22,946 nt of DNA from a virus. Shown here in pieces: positions 6,514 through 16,073 of the stretch (positions are counted from its first letter, which is position 1; each line of letters starts with the position of its first letter). The notes below the pieces were generated by a model that had not been told where the DNA came from, ran no database searches, and saw nothing but the letters and a program-made list of their open reading frames with translations. Where the stretch lies: positions 1 through 22,946 of the IMG/VR virus record IMGVR_UViG_3300008113_000864, one strand, 5' to 3'. The translations under genes were made by a program, and so were the position numbers.

Positions 6514-6597
6514 GCGTTGAGCCTTGCTCCGCGCTGCTCTTCCTCCCTGGAGCAGCGGCCCCTGCGTCTCCCATCAGGCGTGGGGGCCATTTTTTTT
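6514..6597 (+). ncRNA. Candidate small structured RNA
   Basis: Between the extended -10 promoter and the terminator lie about 84 bases with no open frame. They hold a perfect 8-bp hairpin (CGCTGCTC 6532-6539 with GAGCAGCG 6550-6557) directly abutting the terminator hairpin. Promoter, two stacked hairpins and U-tract together look like a short independent transcript. The alternative is an attenuated leader of the early operon. Confidence 0.35.
6557..6597 (+). terminator. Rho-independent terminator
   Basis: GGCCCC (6557-6562) pairs with GGGGCC (6583-6588), extended by four inner pairs of which two are G-T, with a 12-base loop. Eight T residues follow (6590-6597). It would end late transcripts from the virion block or the short transcript that starts near 6514. 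Confidence 0.8.
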
Positions 6598-6601
6598 AGA
6601 G

Positions 6602-6650
6602 TTATCCACAGGTTTGTTAGACAGGTGTTGCATATAAAAAAATATATGAT
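6602..6650 (+). promoter_or_regulatory. Perfect DnaA box with adjacent AT-rich tract
   Basis: TTATCCACA (6602-6610) equals the bacterial DnaA box consensus. About 20 bases downstream is a stretch made only of A and T plus one G (about 6632-6648), resembling a DNA-unwinding element and also able to serve as a promoter. It lies about 200 bases upstream of a gene whose product resembles the DnaA DNA-binding domain. It could be an initiation site or an operator for host DnaA or the phage protein. Confidence 0.6.
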
Positions 6651-6701
6651 ACGGTCTCAGACATCAGCGATGGGGCTGAGTAACACGGAGACACGGAAAC
6701 A

Positions 6702-6815
6702 ATGTCAGAGCCAGATCCGCGCGTCGTAAGATTTCTGATAAATTTACTTGCGATGTGCCTATTCTCGATTATCGTATTCGGTCTAGCTTATATCGTAGAT
6801 GGGTATGTGCAATGA
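6702..6815 (+). CDS. Small single-pass membrane protein
   Basis: The product has 37 residues. It starts at ATG 6702, with CGGAG upstream at slightly long spacing, and ends in an ATGA overlap with the next gene, which supports it being real. Residues 10-32 (about FLINLLAMCLFSIIVFGLAY) form one strongly hydrophobic helix, with Arg residues before it and Asp after it. It has no recognisable family. As the first gene of the early operon it might act on the host membrane or on superinfection; a holin is less likely at this position. Function is unknown. Confidence 0.6.
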   Translation: MSEPDPRVVRFLINLLAMCLFSIIVFGLAYIVDGYVQ

Positions 6816-7282
6816 CCAGCGTTGATTGGAGATCGCATTACAAAGACGTGCGACTGAGACTTCGTGCTGCACCGCAGCATAACTTTGTCAGAGCACAACT
6901 AAGGGAGCCACCTGCACCACAGCCAGAGCCAGAGCCTGTAGCAGAAGAGGTACAAGTCGAAGAAGGACCGGCACCGCTTCCGCCTGTGCTCGCAAAGCAG
7001 TTTAGCGAAGCGCATCAGCTTCTCCGCGCTGCTAAGATCACGGTCGTACCACGGTGGAAGGAAATTCTGAGGGAGACATGCAGCAAGCACAAGATTCATC
7101 CAGAGGCAGTTACTGGCAACTCGCGCGAAGCGCCTTTGGTAAAGTGTCGCCGCGAAGTCTATTACCGACTGCGGACGGAGTTAGGGATGAGTTTGAGTCA
7201 GATCGGTCTCAAGCTGAACAAGGATCACACGAGCGTACTCTACGGTGTGAGGGAATACGCAAAAGCATTAGGGAAAGAATGA
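6812..7282 (+). CDS. DnaA domain IV-like DNA-binding protein
   Basis: The protein has 156 residues from ATG 6812; the preceding gene ends as ATGA across this start, which favours it over an upstream ATG at 6755. Residues 1-30 are basic, 31-58 are a Pro/Glu-rich linker, and about 95-152 resemble domain IV of bacterial DnaA. That part shows a basic helix (KCRREVYYRLRTELG), SLSQIGLKLNK, then DHTSVLYG (138-145). These match the SLPEIG..F..RDHTTVLHA signature that reads the DnaA box. No AAA+ ATPase part is present. It probably binds DnaA-box-like sites and either recruits or blocks the initiator. A perfect box lies about 200 bases upstream. The homology is clear by eye; the role is inferred. Confidence 0.75.
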   Translation: MTSVDWRSHYKDVRLRLRAAPQHNFVRAQLREPPAPQPEPEPVAEEVQVEEGPAPLPPVLAKQFSEAHQLLRAAKITVVPRWKEILRETCSKHKIHPEAVTGNSREAPLVKCRREVYYRLRTELGMSLSQIGLKLNKDHTSVLYGVREYAKALGKE

Positions 7283-7638
7283 TGGACCATAGAGATGTAC
7301 TTAAAGAAGCTCAGTCTATTTTATCGCAACGCAGTAATAATTACGGAGAGGCGCAATATAGCTTTGCTCGTGCAGCAACACTGATGAGCGTTCTCTCAGG
7401 CAAGAGCTATTCGGCATACGATATGTCGCTAGCGATGCTTGCGATCAAACTATCGCGTCTTGCGAATAGCCCAGATCATCACGACTCATGGGTAGACGGA
7501 ATTAACTACATGGCATTCTGTGCAGAGTTTCAAGGAAGGGAAGCGCCAGATGCTGTGCTAGATCTGTCACTAAAGCGCGTACAGTCAAACTTAAACGAAG
7601 CAATCAGGGGAGATGGTAATGGTGGAAGTAAGACCTGA
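7279..7638 (+). CDS. DUF6378/MazG-like protein
   Basis: The product is 119 residues long. The start at 7279 forms an ATGA overlap with the preceding gene and has a GGGAAAG site; ATG 7282 directly after is an equal alternative. Residues include an N-terminal helix with SQRSNNYGEAQYSFARAA, then a MAIKLSRLANSPDHHDSWVDGINYMAF stretch. This is the helical D..DS..D.a.Y pattern of the phage DUF6378 group, related to MazG-like all-alpha NTP pyrophosphatases. Those proteins are thought to act on nucleotides, but catalysis is not shown for this group. It sits in the replication operon, consistent with a nucleotide-pool role. Confidence 0.65.
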   Translation: MMDHRDVLKEAQSILSQRSNNYGEAQYSFARAATLMSVLSGKSYSAYDMSLAMLAIKLSRLANSPDHHDSWVDGINYMAFCAEFQGREAPDAVLDLSLKRVQSNLNEAIRGDGNGGSKT

Positions 7639-7822
7639 CGGACCAAACGAATACGTGATCCTGAGAGATCATGCTGTCGCTGGGTGGGTTCATCTCGCAA
7701 GCGATAAGAAATATCGTGCGCTGACAGTTGACGGTCATCTCACACATCACTGGACACTTACATCAGCACTCTCAGCAGTAGCGGATGACGCAGAGGACAT
7801 CGAAGTACATGCGACTCGATAA
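7619..7822 (+). CDS. Hypothetical protein
   Basis: This is a 67-residue protein of unknown family. Three starts are possible (ATG 7613, ATG 7619, GTG 7622). A GGGGAG site at 7607-7612 fits ATG 7619 best, because 7613 would leave no spacing. It overlaps the end of the previous gene by 20 bases and the start of the next by 14. Sequence pattern suggests a small beta-rich fold (EYVILRDH, AGWVHLA, RALTVDG) with an acidic C-terminal part. The tight overlaps argue for translational coupling in the early operon. Confidence 0.55.
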   Translation: MVEVRPDGPNEYVILRDHAVAGWVHLASDKKYRALTVDGHLTHHWTLTSALSAVADDAEDIEVHATR

Positions 7823-8603
7823 CGTACCAGCATCAGAGTATCACTCATGGGATGCACTCTCAGCTTCAGGCGCAAAGCAGTTGCTAAGATCACCGGCACA
7901 CTATCTCGCATCAAAAGAGATGCAGCGTGAGCCAACACCAGCAATGAAATTCGGCACACTCGTTCACGCAATGGTATTAGAGCCAGACACAGTTGACACT
8001 GACTTCGCAGCGATGCCGAAAATCGATAAGCGTACCACAGCAGGCAAACAGCAAGCTGAACTCTTTGCAGTGACAAACGCGGGTAAAGTGATCGTTGATA
8101 TGGATGACTTTCAACGCGCACAGAGAACAGCAGATGCCGTGCGATCACATCATCTCTATAACGATCTCTTGAAAGGCGCGAGCGTCGAGCAATCGTTCCG
8201 GTGGGAGCAACACGGTGTACCGTGCAAGGCTCGCATGGACGCGATACAGGGCGATCTCATAGTGGACCTGAAGACAACGCAAGACGCGTCACCTGATGGT
8301 TTCGCTAAGACGATGGCAGGGCTGAAGTACTACGTGCAAGCGGCCCATTATCTCGACGGGTTCGCCCGTGTCACTGGCACCGAGCAGCGCAACTTTATCT
8401 TCATCGCAGTGGAGACAGAAGCGCCTTTTGCTATTGGCATATACGAACTCGACTACGTGGCGCTCGAAGCTGGTCGCCATAAGATGGCTCTTGCAGCCGA
8501 AGCCTATAAAGCAACGAAGAGCGCTGACGCGTGGAAGGGTTACTCGCCCGACATTGTCACGCTCTCTGTTCCGTCATGGGTGGCAGGTGAAGTAAATGGA
8601 TGA
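7809..8603 (+). CDS. PD-(D/E)XK nuclease, exodeoxyribonuclease VIII-like
   Basis: The product has 264 residues from ATG 7809; an ATG at 7785 is possible but family members usually begin close to the DNVPASEYHSWDALSAS stretch seen here. Visible motifs include GTLVHAMVLEP (49-59), RMDAI with Asp144, VDLKTT with Asp153 and Lys155, and YVQAAHYLDGF (175-185). This set is typical of RecE/Cas4-type PD-(D/E)XK nucleases. It probably degrades one DNA strand from ends to create single-stranded DNA for recombination or replication restart. A RecT-like annealing partner is not recognised; the SSB-like protein encoded at 9283 might fill part of that role. No obvious ribosome site precedes the start, so it is probably translated by coupling. 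Confidence 0.8.
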   Translation: MRLDNVPASEYHSWDALSASGAKQLLRSPAHYLASKEMQREPTPAMKFGTLVHAMVLEPDTVDTDFAAMPKIDKRTTAGKQQAELFAVTNAGKVIVDMDDFQRAQRTADAVRSHHLYNDLLKGASVEQSFRWEQHGVPCKARMDAIQGDLIVDLKTTQDASPDGFAKTMAGLKYYVQAAHYLDGFARVTGTEQRNFIFIAVETEAPFAIGIYELDYVALEAGRHKMALAAEAYKATKSADAWKGYSPDIVTLSVPSWVAGEVNG

Positions 8604-8744
8604 CATCATCGACGAGTTAGAGAGTGTCCGCATCACTGCTGGCATGAGCACAAGGGAGCTGTCATCGCGCGCCGGTCTTACTCCGAGTCAGCAAAGGTGC
8701 TTGGTTATACGATCGTAGCGATACCAGTACCGGTGACAGAATGA
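8596..8744 (+). pseudogene. Broken XRE-type helix-turn-helix regulator
   Basis: From ATG 8596 a 40-residue frame begins with DELESVRITAGMSTRELSSRAGLT, the first two helices of a Cro/CI-like (XRE) domain, then runs off into an unrelated tail and stops at 8718. In the -1 frame, from about 8680, the sequence reads KVLGYTIVAIPVPVTE and stops at 8744 as ATGA with the next gene. That resembles the C-terminal end of small HipB-like regulators. The recognition helix region between the two parts is missing. This looks like a regulator damaged by an internal deletion that also shifted the frame. The 40-residue product may still be made, since the start overlaps the nuclease gene by 8 bases. Confidence 0.5.
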
Positions 8745-9214
8745 AGATCTGCGGCATCGATCCGGGAGCAAGCGGAGCAATCGCGATACTCGATATCGAC
8801 AAAGGATATCTGTCAGTGATTGATATGCCGGTGCACGCGGTCGAGCGCAACGGAAAGAAGAAGAACGAAATCTCAGCGCAGATACTGGCTCGCTATCTCG
8901 AAGATGAGAAACCGGATCACGTATGGGTTGAGAGAGTCGGTGCAATGCCGGGACAGGGTGTCAGTTCGATGTTCCAGTTTGGCAGAAGCGTCGGCACAGT
9001 TGAAGGAATAGTTGCAGCGCTGCGTCTTCCCATCTCGTATGTCACGCCGCAGAAATGGCAGAAGGCATCAGGTATGCGAGCAGGGAAAGACGGATCACGG
9101 CAACGAGCACAGGAACTTTTTCCTACATTTGCCCTACATTTTTCAAGAATGAAGGACAACGGAAGAAGTGACGCTGCGCTCATCGCGTGGTTTGGTGCAA
9201 CACAGGAACCCTAA
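8741..9214 (+). CDS. RuvC-like Holliday junction resolvase
   Basis: This 157-residue protein starts at ATG 8741. It has the RuvC/RNase H-fold layout: CGIDPGASGAIAI with Asp7, VWVERV with Glu64, the GVSSMFQFGRSVGTVEGI segment, VTPQKWQK, and GRSDAALIAWFG with Asp144. These carboxylates form the metal site. Phage enzymes of this type resolve branched recombination or replication intermediates before packaging. Length is close to bacterial RuvC. The neighbours are the exonuclease and the SSB-like protein, which together form a recombination module. Confidence 0.88.
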   Translation: MKICGIDPGASGAIAILDIDKGYLSVIDMPVHAVERNGKKKNEISAQILARYLEDEKPDHVWVERVGAMPGQGVSSMFQFGRSVGTVEGIVAALRLPISYVTPQKWQKASGMRAGKDGSRQRAQELFPTFALHFSRMKDNGRSDAALIAWFGATQEP

Positions 9215-9257
9215 TGAGAGAGGGATTACTCTCATCCGACATGGTCACGGTCTGACC
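9214..9257. other. Two small hairpins in the leader of the SSB-like gene
   Basis: ATGAGAG (9214-9220) can pair with CTCTCAT (9229-9235), and GGTCA can pair with TGACC a few bases on. No T-tract follows, so this is not a terminator. It may be an RNA processing or translational control element before the strong ribosome site at 9272-9278. Confidence 0.3.
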
Positions 9258-9282
9258 TATCAGTAACTCTGAAGGAGTAACA

Positions 9283-9831
9283 ATGTTGAACTTTCCACAG
9301 CAAGCATCAGGCAAACCTTGGGCGCGTCTCGATGCACGTACAGGCATTCTATTTGTGTCATCGGCAGATGGGGAAAAGACACCGGTCGACATGAAAGGGA
9401 AAGTATTCGGGTTAGACATCGCTAACGCTACACAGGGCTGGCTCATGGTTGGCGCAGCAGGTGTGGACTGGCAAGAGGTTAACGGTGCGTGGGGCAACCC
9501 ACCATCGCCAGACCATAAGCCGGGTGTGGATGTCACGATCTACTCAAAGGATGCGTCATTCGGGGACGCGCCATTCCGTAGTGCTCGTGGCAATTCCAGA
9601 GCGTGGACCCAATTCGTTGCAGATGTTGCGAAGAAGGCAGGAGCAATTCCAGCCGGTAAACTCGCAACGCTGAAGGTTGACGCGGTCAAGTCCATCAAGG
9701 TCGGTCAGGGCACATCTGTGCAGATCGACTTCACGCTGGCACCGAAAGAGAAGTGGTTCTCGGCTGAAGAGGCAGCTCCCGCACCTGCATCAGCACCTGC
9801 TAGCGTATCTGACTCGGATGACGAGTTCTAA
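9283..9831 (+). CDS. SSB-like protein with acidic C-terminal tip (putative)
   Basis: The product has 182 residues; GAAGGAG precedes ATG 9283 at good spacing. I do not recognise a named family. Residues 1-150 look like a compact beta-rich domain with aromatic residues (GKPWARLDARTGILFV, GWLMVGAAG, DVTIYSKDASFG). Residues 155-173 are an Ala/Pro/Ser-rich linker and the protein ends DSDDEF. A flexible linker plus acidic, Phe-ending tip is how bacterial SSB and T7 gp2.5-type proteins contact partners. Its place between the resolvase and the primase-helicase supports a single-strand DNA-binding role. An annealing protein is an alternative. The strong ribosome site suggests high expression. Confidence 0.5.
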   Translation: MLNFPQQASGKPWARLDARTGILFVSSADGEKTPVDMKGKVFGLDIANATQGWLMVGAAGVDWQEVNGAWGNPPSPDHKPGVDVTIYSKDASFGDAPFRSARGNSRAWTQFVADVAKKAGAIPAGKLATLKVDAVKSIKVGQGTSVQIDFTLAPKEKWFSAEEAAPAPASAPASVSDSDDEF

Positions 9832-9838
9832 GTAAAAG

Positions 9839-9878
9839 AAACCCCCGCACTGATACCCGATATCAGTACGGGGGTTTT
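9839..9878 (+). terminator. Strong rho-independent terminator (likely bidirectional)
   Basis: CCCCCG (9842-9847) pairs with CGGGGG (9069-type arm at 9869 to 9874), and ACTGATA (9849-9855) pairs with TATCAGT (9861-9867), with one C-A mismatch and a five-base loop. TTTT follows on this strand. On the other strand the stem is followed by TTTCTTTT. It separates the early operon from the primase-helicase gene. Confidence 0.9.
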
Positions 9879-9909
9879 AGTCGGGAGGATTCCAACAACG
9901 GAGATTGCT

Positions 9910-12123
9910 GTGAGTGAAAGCCTACAACAAGATGAAGTGATACACAACTCTGCTATGCACAAGATGTCGTTAGCCTTTGCCAATAACGGTTTTAAGGACA
10001 CCAGTCTCACATCTAAAGATTACACGTTGAAGGATCTCAGTGACCGGTTGAAGCGCGTCCGTGTCGGGCCAAAGGATGGCTCATACATGATACGGGGCGG
10101 TGATCTCACGATCTGCAAGCGCGCCGACGAGAATCTCAGATCGGCGGAACTCATTATCCTCGACGGTGATTCGTCCATCGATCCAGAGACAGGCGAGATC
10201 ACACCCGGTGCCCCCTATTTCTATGACGTGCACGAAGCGCTCAAAGACATGGGCATCGCTCACATCATGCACACGTCACACTCAAACCGTGGCTCTGATG
10301 GCGTGGTGAGCTTCTGGAAATTCCGTGTAGTCATCCCGTGCCAGATGCAGTCGCATGAGGATCTTATCGCCGGTGTCGATTACCTCATCGCGGAGCTGCA
10401 TAAGCGTAAGATCTGGATGAACTGCGTCACAGAGAACTATCGCTGGTCACAGCCTTGGTTTCTCCCGCGCGTCAGCAAAGAGGAAGAGCGCGAGCGTTTC
10501 GTGCATCGCGATTACCTCGACGGGAAGATCTTCGAGATCGAGACAGCCCTGAAGTGGCAGCGCGAACAGACCAGTTTAGACGATAAGATAGACCAGTTTA
10601 AGTTGTGGTTGCCGGCAACCCAGTCGAGCAACACGATCACTGATTTCAATCAGCAGCACGGTCTGGAATGGATGCGAGCGCAACTGGCATCGATGGGTTA
10701 CAAGTTTAGCCATTACGACAAGCGGCATGACGCATACCGATACGTGTCGCCCACGAGCAGCACAGGCACAGCGGGAGTTCTCCTATTCCGTGGCGCGCGT
10801 GGCGACTGGATCACCTATTCCCATCACGGGGCGCACGATCCGCTGTCAGAGAAAGTGATGGACCCGTTCGCGATATACGCACTCGTAAATTTTTCTGGGG
10901 ATAACTCTGCCGCACTACGGTCGCTGCAACCAAGAGAAAAGAGCATCACTGAACAGCTCTCAGAGATGCGGGATCACAGTGCGAGCACCGCCGCACCGCA
11001 ACAAGATAATGCTGCACCGCAAAACAAAAAGCGCATCGAAATCCTGCGCATGGATCAGCTCACCGACGAGCCAGTGCAATGGCTGATAGAGGACCTGATC
11101 CCCGCAAAGGCATTCGCAGCGATCTACGGGAAGCCCGGCAGCTTCAAGTCATTCGTGGCAATATATCTCAGCCAGATGATCGCGGCGGGGAAACCGGCAT
11201 TCGAGAAACCGACTACTCAAGGGACGTGCCTATACATCGCAGGGGAAGGCCAAGCAGGACTAAAGAAGCGCTCTGACGCATCTCGTATAGCTCACGACAT
11301 TGAGCCGTCTGTGCCTCTCTATTTCATCAAGAGAAGCCTGAACCTCAGCTCGACGCTGGAAGACATGCAGGAGCTCATCAAGGAGATCATGGAACTCGGT
11401 ATCGCGCCATCCCTCATAGTCATCGACACGCTTGCTCGGAACTTCGTCGGGGACGAGAACAGCTCATCAGACATGAGCCAATTTATATCGGTCATAGGCG
11501 AGCTTATAGCCCAACTCAGTTGCTCGGTGCTGGTGGTCCACCATGCCGGCAAGGACGAGTCAAAGGGTATGCGTGGCTCGTCAGCATTGCTCGGTGCTGT
11601 GGACGCGGAACTCGAATGCACCCGCACATCAGATGAGGAGGACAAGGACCACCTGACCGGAAAACTGACCACCACAAAGCAGAAGGAATCGGAGGACGGG
11701 GTCGAGTTTCACTTCAAGATGCAGCGGATCCTGACAGATAAACTGGACCCGAATATCGTCTCACTAGGGCTTAGACCCTGTGAGAAACAGCACAGCAAAA
11801 AGAAGCAGAAAAAGCAGCTCACGGAGAGCGAAATTTTCACGCTGGAAGCCTTTGACCTAGCAGTCTCAGAAGTCGGAAAGCGCTATGGGATACCAGGAAT
11901 ACCGCCAGATAAACTGTGTATCAGACGCGCTGATTGGTTAGCCTATTTCCGACATTTGTGTGCTGGAGACGACAAATTTAGCGAAAGAGCGTACCAAAGA
12001 GCGGCTGCGTCGCTCAGTGTGGCGAAAATCATAGCCGCCAAAGGCGACATTTTGTGGAAAACCGAGCAACATCAACATGTTACAGAAAAATCCGACAAGC
12101 CGACATTGCCCGACATGGCGTAG
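9910..12123 (+). CDS. Primase-helicase fusion (AEP-like plus RepA-type RecA-fold helicase)
   Basis: The protein has 737 residues; GTG 9910 follows a CGGAGA site, and ATG 9955 is a weaker alternative. The N-terminal part shows ILDGD (Asp85, Asp87), HTSHSN (His121-His124) and KFRVVIP, the spacing of archaeo-eukaryotic primase/PrimPol catalytic motifs. The C-terminal half is a RecA-fold ATPase of the RSF1010 RepA/AAA_25 type: Walker A GKPGSFKS (407-414), IAGEG, Walker B LIVIDT (Asp506), then VVHHAGKD and KGMRGSSAL. A basic Lys-rich stretch and a probable winged helix end the protein. It should prime and unwind phage DNA for the host polymerase. Helicase assignment is strong; primase activity is inferred from motifs. 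Confidence 0.82.
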   Translation: MSESLQQDEVIHNSAMHKMSLAFANNGFKDTSLTSKDYTLKDLSDRLKRVRVGPKDGSYMIRGGDLTICKRADENLRSAELIILDGDSSIDPETGEITPGAPYFYDVHEALKDMGIAHIMHTSHSNRGSDGVVSFWKFRVVIPCQMQSHEDLIAGVDYLIAELHKRKIWMNCVTENYRWSQPWFLPRVSKEEERERFVHRDYLDGKIFEIETALKWQREQTSLDDKIDQFKLWLPATQSSNTITDFNQQHGLEWMRAQLASMGYKFSHYDKRHDAYRYVSPTSSTGTAGVLLFRGARGDWITYSHHGAHDPLSEKVMDPFAIYALVNFSGDNSAALRSLQPREKSITEQLSEMRDHSASTAAPQQDNAAPQNKKRIEILRMDQLTDEPVQWLIEDLIPAKAFAAIYGKPGSFKSFVAIYLSQMIAAGKPAFEKPTTQGTCLYIAGEGQAGLKKRSDASRIAHDIEPSVPLYFIKRSLNLSSTLEDMQELIKEIMELGIAPSLIVIDTLARNFVGDENSSSDMSQFISVIGELIAQLSCSVLVVHHAGKDESKGMRGSSALLGAVDAELECTRTSDEEDKDHLTGKLTTTKQKESEDGVEFHFKMQRILTDKLDPNIVSLGLRPCEKQHSKKKQKKQLTESEIFTLEAFDLAVSEVGKRYGIPGIPPDKLCIRRADWLAYFRHLCAGDDKFSERAYQRAAASLSVAKIIAAKGDILWKTEQHQHVTEKSDKPTLPDMA

Positions 12124-12279: not shown

Positions 12280-12582
12280 ATGAGCAATATCGGGGGTGGT
12301 GATGGCGGTGAGGGTGAGCGTCCCGTGATCCAGTTGTACCAGCTGGTGATGCAGGAGCAGGGTGACGCGGACAGGGTCAAGAAAGGGTGCTGCGAGCGGT
12401 GTCTCTTTTGGGTGGGGTTTAATGAGAACACCAATTCTGAGCCTGAAGGCGAGTGTCATAGACTGCCGCCGCAAGTCACCGCGACGGGTACGGTCAAGGA
12501 TCAGCACTACGGATGCAGCTGGCCTATCACCGGCGCGTCTGACTGGTGCGGGGAGTTCGAGGAAGCGGTGAGGATGAACTGA
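12280..12582 (+). CDS. Small Cys-rich, probably zinc-binding protein
   Basis: This 100-residue protein has GAGGAG ahead of ATG 12280. Cysteines at 37, 38, 41, 59, 79 and 90 are arranged as CCERC...GEC...DWCGEF. The final DWCGEF with an upstream CxxC-type pair is a motif I have seen in small phage and proteobacterial hypothetical proteins and implies one zinc site. The N-terminus is Gly/Glu-rich. The role is unknown; DNA or protein binding is plausible. It is joined to the next gene by a TGATG overlap. Confidence 0.6.
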   Translation: MSNIGGGDGGEGERPVIQLYQLVMQEQGDADRVKKGCCERCLFWVGFNENTNSEPEGECHRLPPQVTATGTVKDQHYGCSWPITGASDWCGEFEEAVRMN

Positions 12583-13145
12583 TGAGCAGACGCATTTCAG
12601 AAATCAGCAACCCGAACGAGATGCTCGTCTGGGAGATGCGTCAAAGGCAGGTTGACGCGGCGCTGGCTCCTCTCGACCGATTGGCGCGGGAGATGGAAGG
12701 CGCTTGGGGTTACCGCCGTCTCCAGTCGCTGGCCTCACCGGATCTCGCGGTCAAGTTTGAGTCGGCGCGTCAGAAGCTCGATGAGGCGATCAAGGCGCAG
12801 GATGCTGACGCTGTAGCCAAGCGCGCCGAGATCCTAATGCGGGGATGGCAGGCACTCGCCAAGGCAGCAGGGGAGCAGGGACACGCACCGCTCGGTGAGG
12901 GCATCTGGCAGGCCAAGAGCGGCGGGAGAACTTACACGGTGGTCCTCGTCAGGGAAGACGCAGACGCGCCAGCCTTGAGTGCCGCCGAGCCTGACACCGT
13001 GGTGAGCGTCGAGGAGCTACTGGTCTGCTGGCGGAATCGCTACGAGAGCGTGGGGAGGGTGAAGGCAGCCTTTCCGGGCGCGACCGTATCGGATGAGCGG
13101 CCTCGGACACGATTGCCGCGCGGTGGGGATGAGATACCGTTTTAG
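12582..13145 (+). CDS. Hypothetical protein
   Basis: The product has 187 residues. ATG 12582 shares one base with the previous stop (TGATG) and has a GAGGA site; a frame-extending GTG/ATG further upstream lies inside the previous gene and is not needed. Residues 10-90 are long charged helices rich in Ala, Glu and Arg (AKRAEILMRGWQALAKAA). Residues 105-125 look like a beta hairpin (IWQAKSGGRTYTVVLVRED). The C-terminus is basic and disordered. No family recognised. Location next to the candidate origin and zinc protein suggests a DNA-metabolism role, without direct support. Confidence 0.6.
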   Translation: MSRRISEISNPNEMLVWEMRQRQVDAALAPLDRLAREMEGAWGYRRLQSLASPDLAVKFESARQKLDEAIKAQDADAVAKRAEILMRGWQALAKAAGEQGHAPLGEGIWQAKSGGRTYTVVLVREDADAPALSAAEPDTVVSVEELLVCWRNRYESVGRVKAAFPGATVSDERPRTRLPRGGDEIPF

Positions 13146-15838: not shown

Positions 15839-15860
15839 TAGGGCTTGGTCTAGTGGGAAG

Positions 15861-15869
15861 TTATCCACA
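15861..15869 (+). promoter_or_regulatory. Second perfect DnaA box
   Basis: TTATCCACA again equals the DnaA box consensus, with the same following base (G) as the box at 6602. It is about 120 bases upstream of the tandem palindromic repeats. Confidence 0.55.
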
Positions 15870-15897
15870 GGCAGAAAACAGTCCCACAGAAATGCTA

Positions 15898-15926
15898 TTG
15901 ACGTTTTGGGAAATCAGTTTTACAAA
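15898..15926 (+). promoter_or_regulatory. Candidate promoter upstream of the repeat array
   Basis: TTGACG (15898-15903), 17-base spacer, TACAAA (15921-15926). Transcription would cross the repeat array and reach the recombinase operon at 16174. Confidence 0.4.
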
Positions 15927-15989: not shown

Positions 15990-16073
15990 CGTCAAACTTT
16001 TGACATGTCAAATAACTGACACTGTCAAACCGTTGACACCGTCAAAGAAATGACACTGTCAAATTTTTGACAC
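15990..16073. repeat. Five tandem 17-base palindromic repeats (iteron-like)
   Basis: Units share GTCAAA-N4-TGACA and begin at 15991, 16007, 16024, 16041 and 16058, so the period is 16, 17, 17, 17. Each unit is itself an inverted repeat with TGTCA/TGACA arms (CGTCA at units one and four); the third is perfect over six bases (TGTCAA/TTGACA). The array lies about 100 bases before the serine recombinase gene and downstream of a DnaA box. It may be a replication iteron array, a recombinase or partition site, or a multi-copy operator. It is not a CRISPR array, as there are no spacers. Confidence 0.85.

What the first reader, a model, noticed from the sequence alone, without database searches (positions are those of the whole stretch)
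6602..7282. Phage protein with a DnaA domain IV-like region next to a perfect DnaA box
The 156-residue protein at 6812 ends in a region matching the DnaA box-binding domain (SLSQIG...DHTSVLYG) but has no ATPase part. A perfect TTATCCACA box and an AT-only tract lie 100-210 bases upstream of it. A second identical box is at 15861. About 0.18 exact copies are expected by chance in this length, so two are notable. The protein may compete with host DnaA, recruit host helicase loader to phage DNA, or repress the early promoter. A phage-encoded DnaA DNA-binding module paired with boxes is a plausible undescribed initiation or host-takeover device.
Basis: partly seen in the sequence, partly recalled or inferred. 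Interest (0 to 1): 0.75.

Follow-up and report, generated by a model that had tools for sequence, protein, structure and literature searches.

The report
Phage DnaA-type DNA-binding protein and box
This uncultured phage makes a small protein that copies only the DNA-reading part of the bacterial replication starter DnaA, and a strictly conserved DnaA recognition site lies just upstream of the promoter for its own early genes; both parts are real, but across phages they mostly occur separately, so what they do together is still an inference.

Summary
Protein 6812-7282 (156 aa) carries a genuine DnaA domain IV (Pfam Bac_DnaA_C, 44.2 bits against a 31.5 cut-off; Foldseek matches to DnaA-box co-crystals), no ATPase, and nearly all box-contact residues. 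TTATCCACA occurs twice (0.09 expected). Box 1 extends to AGTTATCCACAGG, invariant in 14 distinct upstream regions from relatives 71-100% identical, while the bases after it diverge.

Boxes lie about 17 and 28 nt upstream of -35-like hexamers of the early operon and of the terminase/resolvase region: regulator positions rather than a compact origin. The AT-only tract is not conserved. Standalone DnaA-C proteins are a common, already annotated phage class; none of 80 distant ones has a box within 600 bp, and 49 of 50 unrelated box-bearing phage records show no such gene. So the pairing belongs to this clade and is not a general module.

Best reading: a DnaA-box switch at the early promoter, readable by host DnaA and by the phage's ATPase-less version, which would act as competitor and autoregulator. 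Binding and function are untested. Two further HYK-DnaA-IV phages, related to each other, carry the same 13-mer upstream of several promoters, which makes the transcription reading testable.

The parts
6812..7282 (+). DnaA domain IV-like protein, 156 aa: N-terminal HYKxVRxRL motif (within res 5-18), Pro/Glu-rich linker, DnaA domain IV (res ~81-153)
   Evidence: Pfam 44.2 bits; AF2 pLDDT about 93 over res 81-150; Foldseek 3pvp, 8btg, 1j1v prob 1.00; motif alignment
6600..6612 (+). Box 1, AGTTATCCACAGG (core TTATCCACA 6602-6610)
   Evidence: invariant in 14 distinct upstream regions, present in 18/18 relatives that have the region
15859..15871 (+). Box 2, AGTTATCCACAGG (core 15861-15869), downstream of terminase small subunit
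   Evidence: syntenic site in 6 genomes; TTWTCCACA kept in 5 of 6
6557..6596 (+). rho-independent terminator closing the upstream genes, directly before box 1
   Evidence: 13-bp stem plus T tract; conserved in relatives
6628..6655 (+). proposed weak early promoter: TTGCAT-N16-TACGGT, -35 starting 26 nt after the start of the box core
   Evidence: hand-aligned across relatives (TTGCGT/TATGGT, TTGTGT/TAGGGT, TTGCCA/TACGGT); the automatic scan found no consensus promoter
   Evidence: both arms change together to CGTATA..TATACG in L009-L013
6702..6815 (+). 37-aa membrane-type peptide, first ORF of the early operon, TGA overlapping the ATG of the DnaA-like gene
   Evidence: read directly; conserved SD block CACGGAGACACGGA
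15898..15926 (+). proposed promoter TTGACG-N17-TACAAA, -35 starting 37 nt after the start of the box 2 core
   Evidence: conserved in 6 genomes; automatic scan negative
7279..12123 (+). rest of the replication/recombination operon: DUF6378, RecE-type exonuclease (7785-8603), RuvC-like resolvase (8741-9214), SSB-like (9283-9831), RepA-type helicase (9910-12123)
   Evidence: Pfam and PHROGs; SSB-like is my reading of its acidic tail only

Best explanation
The 6812 gene makes an ATPase-less DnaA-box-binding protein (shown: domain IV fold and contact residues; inferred: binding). The 13-bp box upstream of its operon is a functional DnaA-type regulatory site (shown: strict conservation; inferred: function) that sets the early promoter, and a second, weaker conserved copy sets the promoter near the terminase/resolvase genes. 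Host DnaA, present at infection, can read the site first; the phage protein then competes for the same site, switching or autoregulating the early operon, and may also occupy host DnaA boxes and so dampen host initiation. Its conserved N-terminal HYKxVRxRL peptide is the likely partner-binding arm. Everything after 'conserved site near promoter-like elements' is inference.
For: Domain IV by sequence, profile and fold. Residues equivalent to E. coli R399, R407, D433, H434, T435 are R105, R113, D138, H139, T140, invariant from the window to relatives about 30% identical (alignments; residue mapping is mine); PMC5742627 gives R399 (minor groove, TTA) and helix 434-451 (TnCACA) as the box readers and R399A and T435M as binding-defective. 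13 of 13 box columns invariant against 14 of 73 in the stretch just downstream. Boxes precede -35-like hexamers by 17 and 28 nt. Related phages G010 and G012, with HYK-DnaA-IV genes, carry AGTTATCCACAGG 14 or 25 nt before -35 hexamers at four and one promoters; in their relative G013 one homologous promoter has no box but a stronger core (TTGACA/TATAAC), the other a degenerate box TTATCCATA. DnaA acts as activator or repressor and stimulates transcription at ori-lambda (PMC8203912).
Against: Gene and box are uncoupled across phages: 0/80 within 600 bp, 4/50 against 1/50 whole records, 49/50 box-bearing records without the gene. More distant syntenic relatives (MW202711, L183, L197, L201, L203) keep the gene without an intergenic box upstream. 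Neither promoter passes the automatic consensus scan. Box 2 is broken in G009 (TTATCAACA). No binding or expression data exist.
Confidence: 0.42

Rival explanations
1. Host DnaA alone reads the boxes, as a borrowed activator or timing signal for phage promoters; the phage DnaA-like protein acts elsewhere (host oriC or another phage site) and the two are neighbours by the history of this clade.
For: The T-tract plus AGTTATCCACAGG word is frequent in phages: at least 119 stretches against 2 for the reversed control, and 49/50 such records lack a DnaA-IV gene. The gene usually has no box nearby. Host DnaA regulates transcription at ori-lambda.
Against: The phage protein keeps the same reading residues, so it should bind the same word wherever present; gene and box are both retained throughout this clade.
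Confidence: 0.28
2. Replication origin: the phage protein (or host DnaA) marks a phage origin at box 1, or at box 2 with the 17-bp repeats at 15990-16072, and helps load the RepA-type helicase.
For: The gene sits in the RecE-RuvC-SSB-RepA operon and this synteny is kept in relatives with RepA 40-48% identical. Box 2 lies close to a repeat array.
Against: One or two boxes per complete genome; AT-only tract not conserved; repeat array absent from G003, G005 and G009 at that site; GC skew shows no turning point; MW202711 has the gene and RepA but no TTATCCACA.
Confidence: 0.17
3. Host takeover only: the protein masks DnaA boxes at host oriC to stop host initiation; the phage box is merely autoregulatory or irrelevant.
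For: Widespread phage class with intact box-reading residues although most such genomes hold no box.
Against: No host identified, no growth data; does not explain the invariance of box 1.
Confidence: 0.1
4. The box match is chance or a by-product of another constrained sequence.
For: Some TTATCCACA matches in relatives are coding coincidences (phosphoesterase LIHKEI).
Against: Box 1 is intergenic, invariant among 14 distinct sequences, flanked by divergent bases.
Confidence: 0.03

Closest known systems
Bacterial DnaA, domain IV (PF08299; structures 1j1v, 3pvp, 8btg)
   Same: fold, helix-turn-helix, box-contact residues
   Different: no domains I-III and no ATPase; S in place of P423, R in place of K415, one residue shorter before the DHT motif
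Standalone 'Chromosomal replication initiator, DnaA C-terminal' proteins of uncultured Caudovirales; DnaA-like proteins of Rhizobium phage RHph_N28_2 and Microcystis phage Mae-JY35; a 'hypothetical protein' of Pelagibacter phage HTVC010P
   Same: small ATPase-less phage protein with DnaA-C domain
   Different: annotated only; no adjacent conserved box in the 80 distant IMG/VR relatives examined; this clade adds the box upstream of the operon
Host DnaA as transcription factor at phage lambda (ori-lambda, pO)
   Same: DnaA-type sites next to a phage promoter of replication genes (PMC8203912, PMC3985674)
   Different: lambda sites only resemble the consensus and are read by host DnaA; lambda encodes no DnaA-like protein (own knowledge)
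TnpA-REP proteins with a C-terminal Bac_DnaA_C domain (PMC6006769)
   Same: DnaA-C domain reused in a mobile element
   Different: fused to a HuH endonuclease; flanking repeats do not resemble DnaA boxes

Membership tests
Bac_DnaA_C (PF08299) domain family | score above curated cut-off | tested here: met
   44.2 against 31.5 bits
Bac_DnaA_C (PF08299) domain family | domain IV fold | tested here: met
   Foldseek 3pvp and 1j1v, prob 1.00, rmsd 1.9-2.0; best PDB E-value 2e-3
Bac_DnaA_C (PF08299) domain family | R399, R407, D433, H434, T435 equivalents | tested here: met
   R105, R113, D138, H139, T140 invariant
DnaA initiator (full family) | AAA+ domain III and NCBIfam equivalog cut-off | tested here: not met
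   156 aa, no AAA+; TIGR00362 34.7 against 343.9 bits
Standalone phage DnaA-C proteins | phage gene, small ORF, DnaA-C as the only recognised domain | tested here: met
   only DnaA-C recognised; 80 distant viral relatives all 255 aa or shorter; BFVD matches
DnaA box | TTWTNCACA sequence | tested here: met
   TTATCCACA x2
DnaA box | bound by DnaA or the phage protein | not testable with these tools
   needs a binding assay
DnaA-dependent replication origin | box cluster plus AT-rich unwinding element | tested here: not met
   single boxes 9 kb apart; AT-only tract not conserved

The most novel reading that the evidence does not exclude
A phage-encoded ATPase-less DnaA reading head that antagonises or replaces host DnaA at DnaA-box promoters, forming an early-to-late switch in the phage and also silencing host initiation, with the HYKxVRxRL peptide as a new recruitment motif shared by many phages.
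Probability: 0.25. Interest if true: 0.72.

Novelty: new variant of a known kind. Interest (0 to 1): 0.42.

Why it matters
Standalone DnaA-C proteins are common in phages and, as far as the searched literature shows, have no tested function. This clade supplies a candidate target site under strong constraint, and two further phages carry the same 13-mer upstream of several promoters, so the question 'what does the phage DnaA head read, and for what' becomes directly testable.

Tried and rejected
A general gene-box module: rejected. Origin with AT-rich unwinding element at box 1: AT-only tract not conserved, no skew signal. Boxes 4-6 kb downstream of RepA in sister phages: coding coincidence inside a phosphoesterase gene. 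Host assignment through prophages: no relative in the genome collection by the A1 scan. Rfam: nothing. tRNA: none. Literature on phage standalone DnaA-IV function: no dedicated study found in the open library. A uniform box-to-promoter spacing in unrelated box phages: not seen, only a few cases at 18-28 nt. N-terminal motif tied to RepA: not seen within fetched stretches; DUF6378 co-occurs more often, 20/33 against 4/47.

Full report
Observation. The ORF at 6812-7282 encodes 156 residues. Pfam Bac_DnaA_C matches residues 84-147 at 44.2 bits, above its cut-off; NCBIfam DnaA models match only by their C-terminal part and far below cut-off, so this is a domain IV without the ATPase. Two TTATCCACA copies, at 6602 and 15861, exceed chance (0.09 expected).

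Structure and reading residues. AlphaFold2 gives pLDDT about 93 for residues 81-150 and low confidence for the N-terminal half. Foldseek ranks DnaA-box complexes first (3pvp, then 8btg and 1j1v, prob 1.00; best E 2e-3). From the alignments, with my own residue count of E. coli DnaA, R399, R407, D433, H434, T435 correspond to R105, R113, D138, H139, T140, all invariant in relatives down to about 30% identity. A review gives R399 and the 434-451 helix as the box readers (PMC5742627).

The box in relatives. A viral scan gave 19 relatives. All 18 with the upstream region have AGTTATCCACAGG 206-216 nt before the gene. In 14 distinct sequences the 13 columns never vary, while only 14 of the next 73 columns are invariant and lineages fall to 32-49% identity there. 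This is a constrained element. It lies between a terminator (6557-6588) and a promoter-like pair TTGCAT-N16-TACGGT that can be followed by eye through the relatives, although the automatic scan does not call it.

Box 2. Downstream of the terminase small subunit the second copy aligns in six genomes: intact core in four, TTTTCCACA in G001, TTATCAACA in G009; 28 nt downstream is a conserved TTGAC[AG]-N17-TACA element. Box-to-hexamer distances for boxes 1 and 2 (17 and 28 nt) differ by 11, one helical turn; with two sites this is suggestive only.

Wider family. Relatives with RepA 40-48% identical keep the gene in the same DUF6378-RecE-RuvC-SSB-RepA order and the N-terminal HYKxVRxR[LI] motif, but have no intergenic box upstream; MW202711 (39.7 kb, circular) has no TTATCCACA at all. 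About 33 of 80 carry the HYK motif. None has TTATCCACA within 600 bp upstream. BFVD holds many such proteins named 'DnaA C-terminal', and cultured phages have them. So the protein class is known by annotation.

Are gene and box coupled? T-tract plus AGTTATCCACAGG occurs in at least 119 viral stretches against 2 for the reversed control, yet only 1 of 50 such records outside the clade has a domain IV match, a weak one with a stop inside, equal to 1 of 50 controls. Conversely GTTATCCACAG occurs in 4 of 50 DnaA-IV records and 1 of 50 controls. Across phages they are essentially independent at this sample size.

A second lineage with both. G010 (61.7 kb) and its relative G012, both with HYK-DnaA-IV genes, carry the 13-mer 14 or 25 nt upstream of -35 hexamers at four and one promoters, with an inverted repeat between -35 and -10. 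In G013, also with the gene, one homologous promoter lacks the box and has a more consensus core, and the other keeps a degenerate TTATCCATA. This fits a regulator site, but does not say whether host DnaA or the phage protein reads it.

Mechanism. The most economical reading is a DnaA-box switch at the early promoter, readable by host DnaA and by the phage's ATPase-less version, the latter as competitor and autoregulator, perhaps acting on host boxes too. Shown: domain identity, residues, conservation, position. Inferred: binding, sign of regulation, host effect. DnaA is known to act as a transcription factor and to stimulate transcription at ori-lambda (PMC8203912; PMC3985674).

Limits. IMG/VR records are mostly fragments; G001, G003, G007 and G009 have end repeats and look complete. 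Promoters are hand-called. The clade is one lineage, so its 18/18 co-occurrence is not 18 independent events. Host unknown.

Noticed in passing
window 15990-16072: Five 16-bp dyads TGTCAA-N4-TTGACA in a row between box 2 and the serine resolvase gene; present in G001, absent at that site in G003, G005 and G009; similar arrays elsewhere in G001 and G007.
   Followed up: partly
L298 (G010:13001-25000) at 846, 1579, 2693, 3359; L301 at 1394: Series of intergenic promoters with AGTTATCCACAGG, a hairpin or short spacer, TTGACA-like -35 and a GCGAAA..TTTCG inverted repeat before the -10, in phages that also encode HYK-DnaA-IV.
   Followed up: partly
Viral-contig scan, loci L049-L165: T-tract followed within 1-4 nt by AGTTATCCACAGG is at least about 60 times commoner than the reversed word in IMG/VR, mostly in contigs without a DnaA-like gene; some may be host-derived (DnaN-like frames).
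   Followed up: partly
L218-L297: A DUF6378 gene lies near HYK-motif DnaA-IV genes in 20 of 33 fetched stretches against 4 of 47 for those without the motif.
   Followed up: no
L023 (MW202711) 35042-35068: Two inverted TTTT[TC]CACA words 18 bp apart inside the repA gene of a relative that lacks TTATCCACA.
   Followed up: no
window 9283-9831 and 12546-13145: Two ORFs ending in acidic SSB-like tails (SDSDDEF, GGDEIPF).
   Followed up: no
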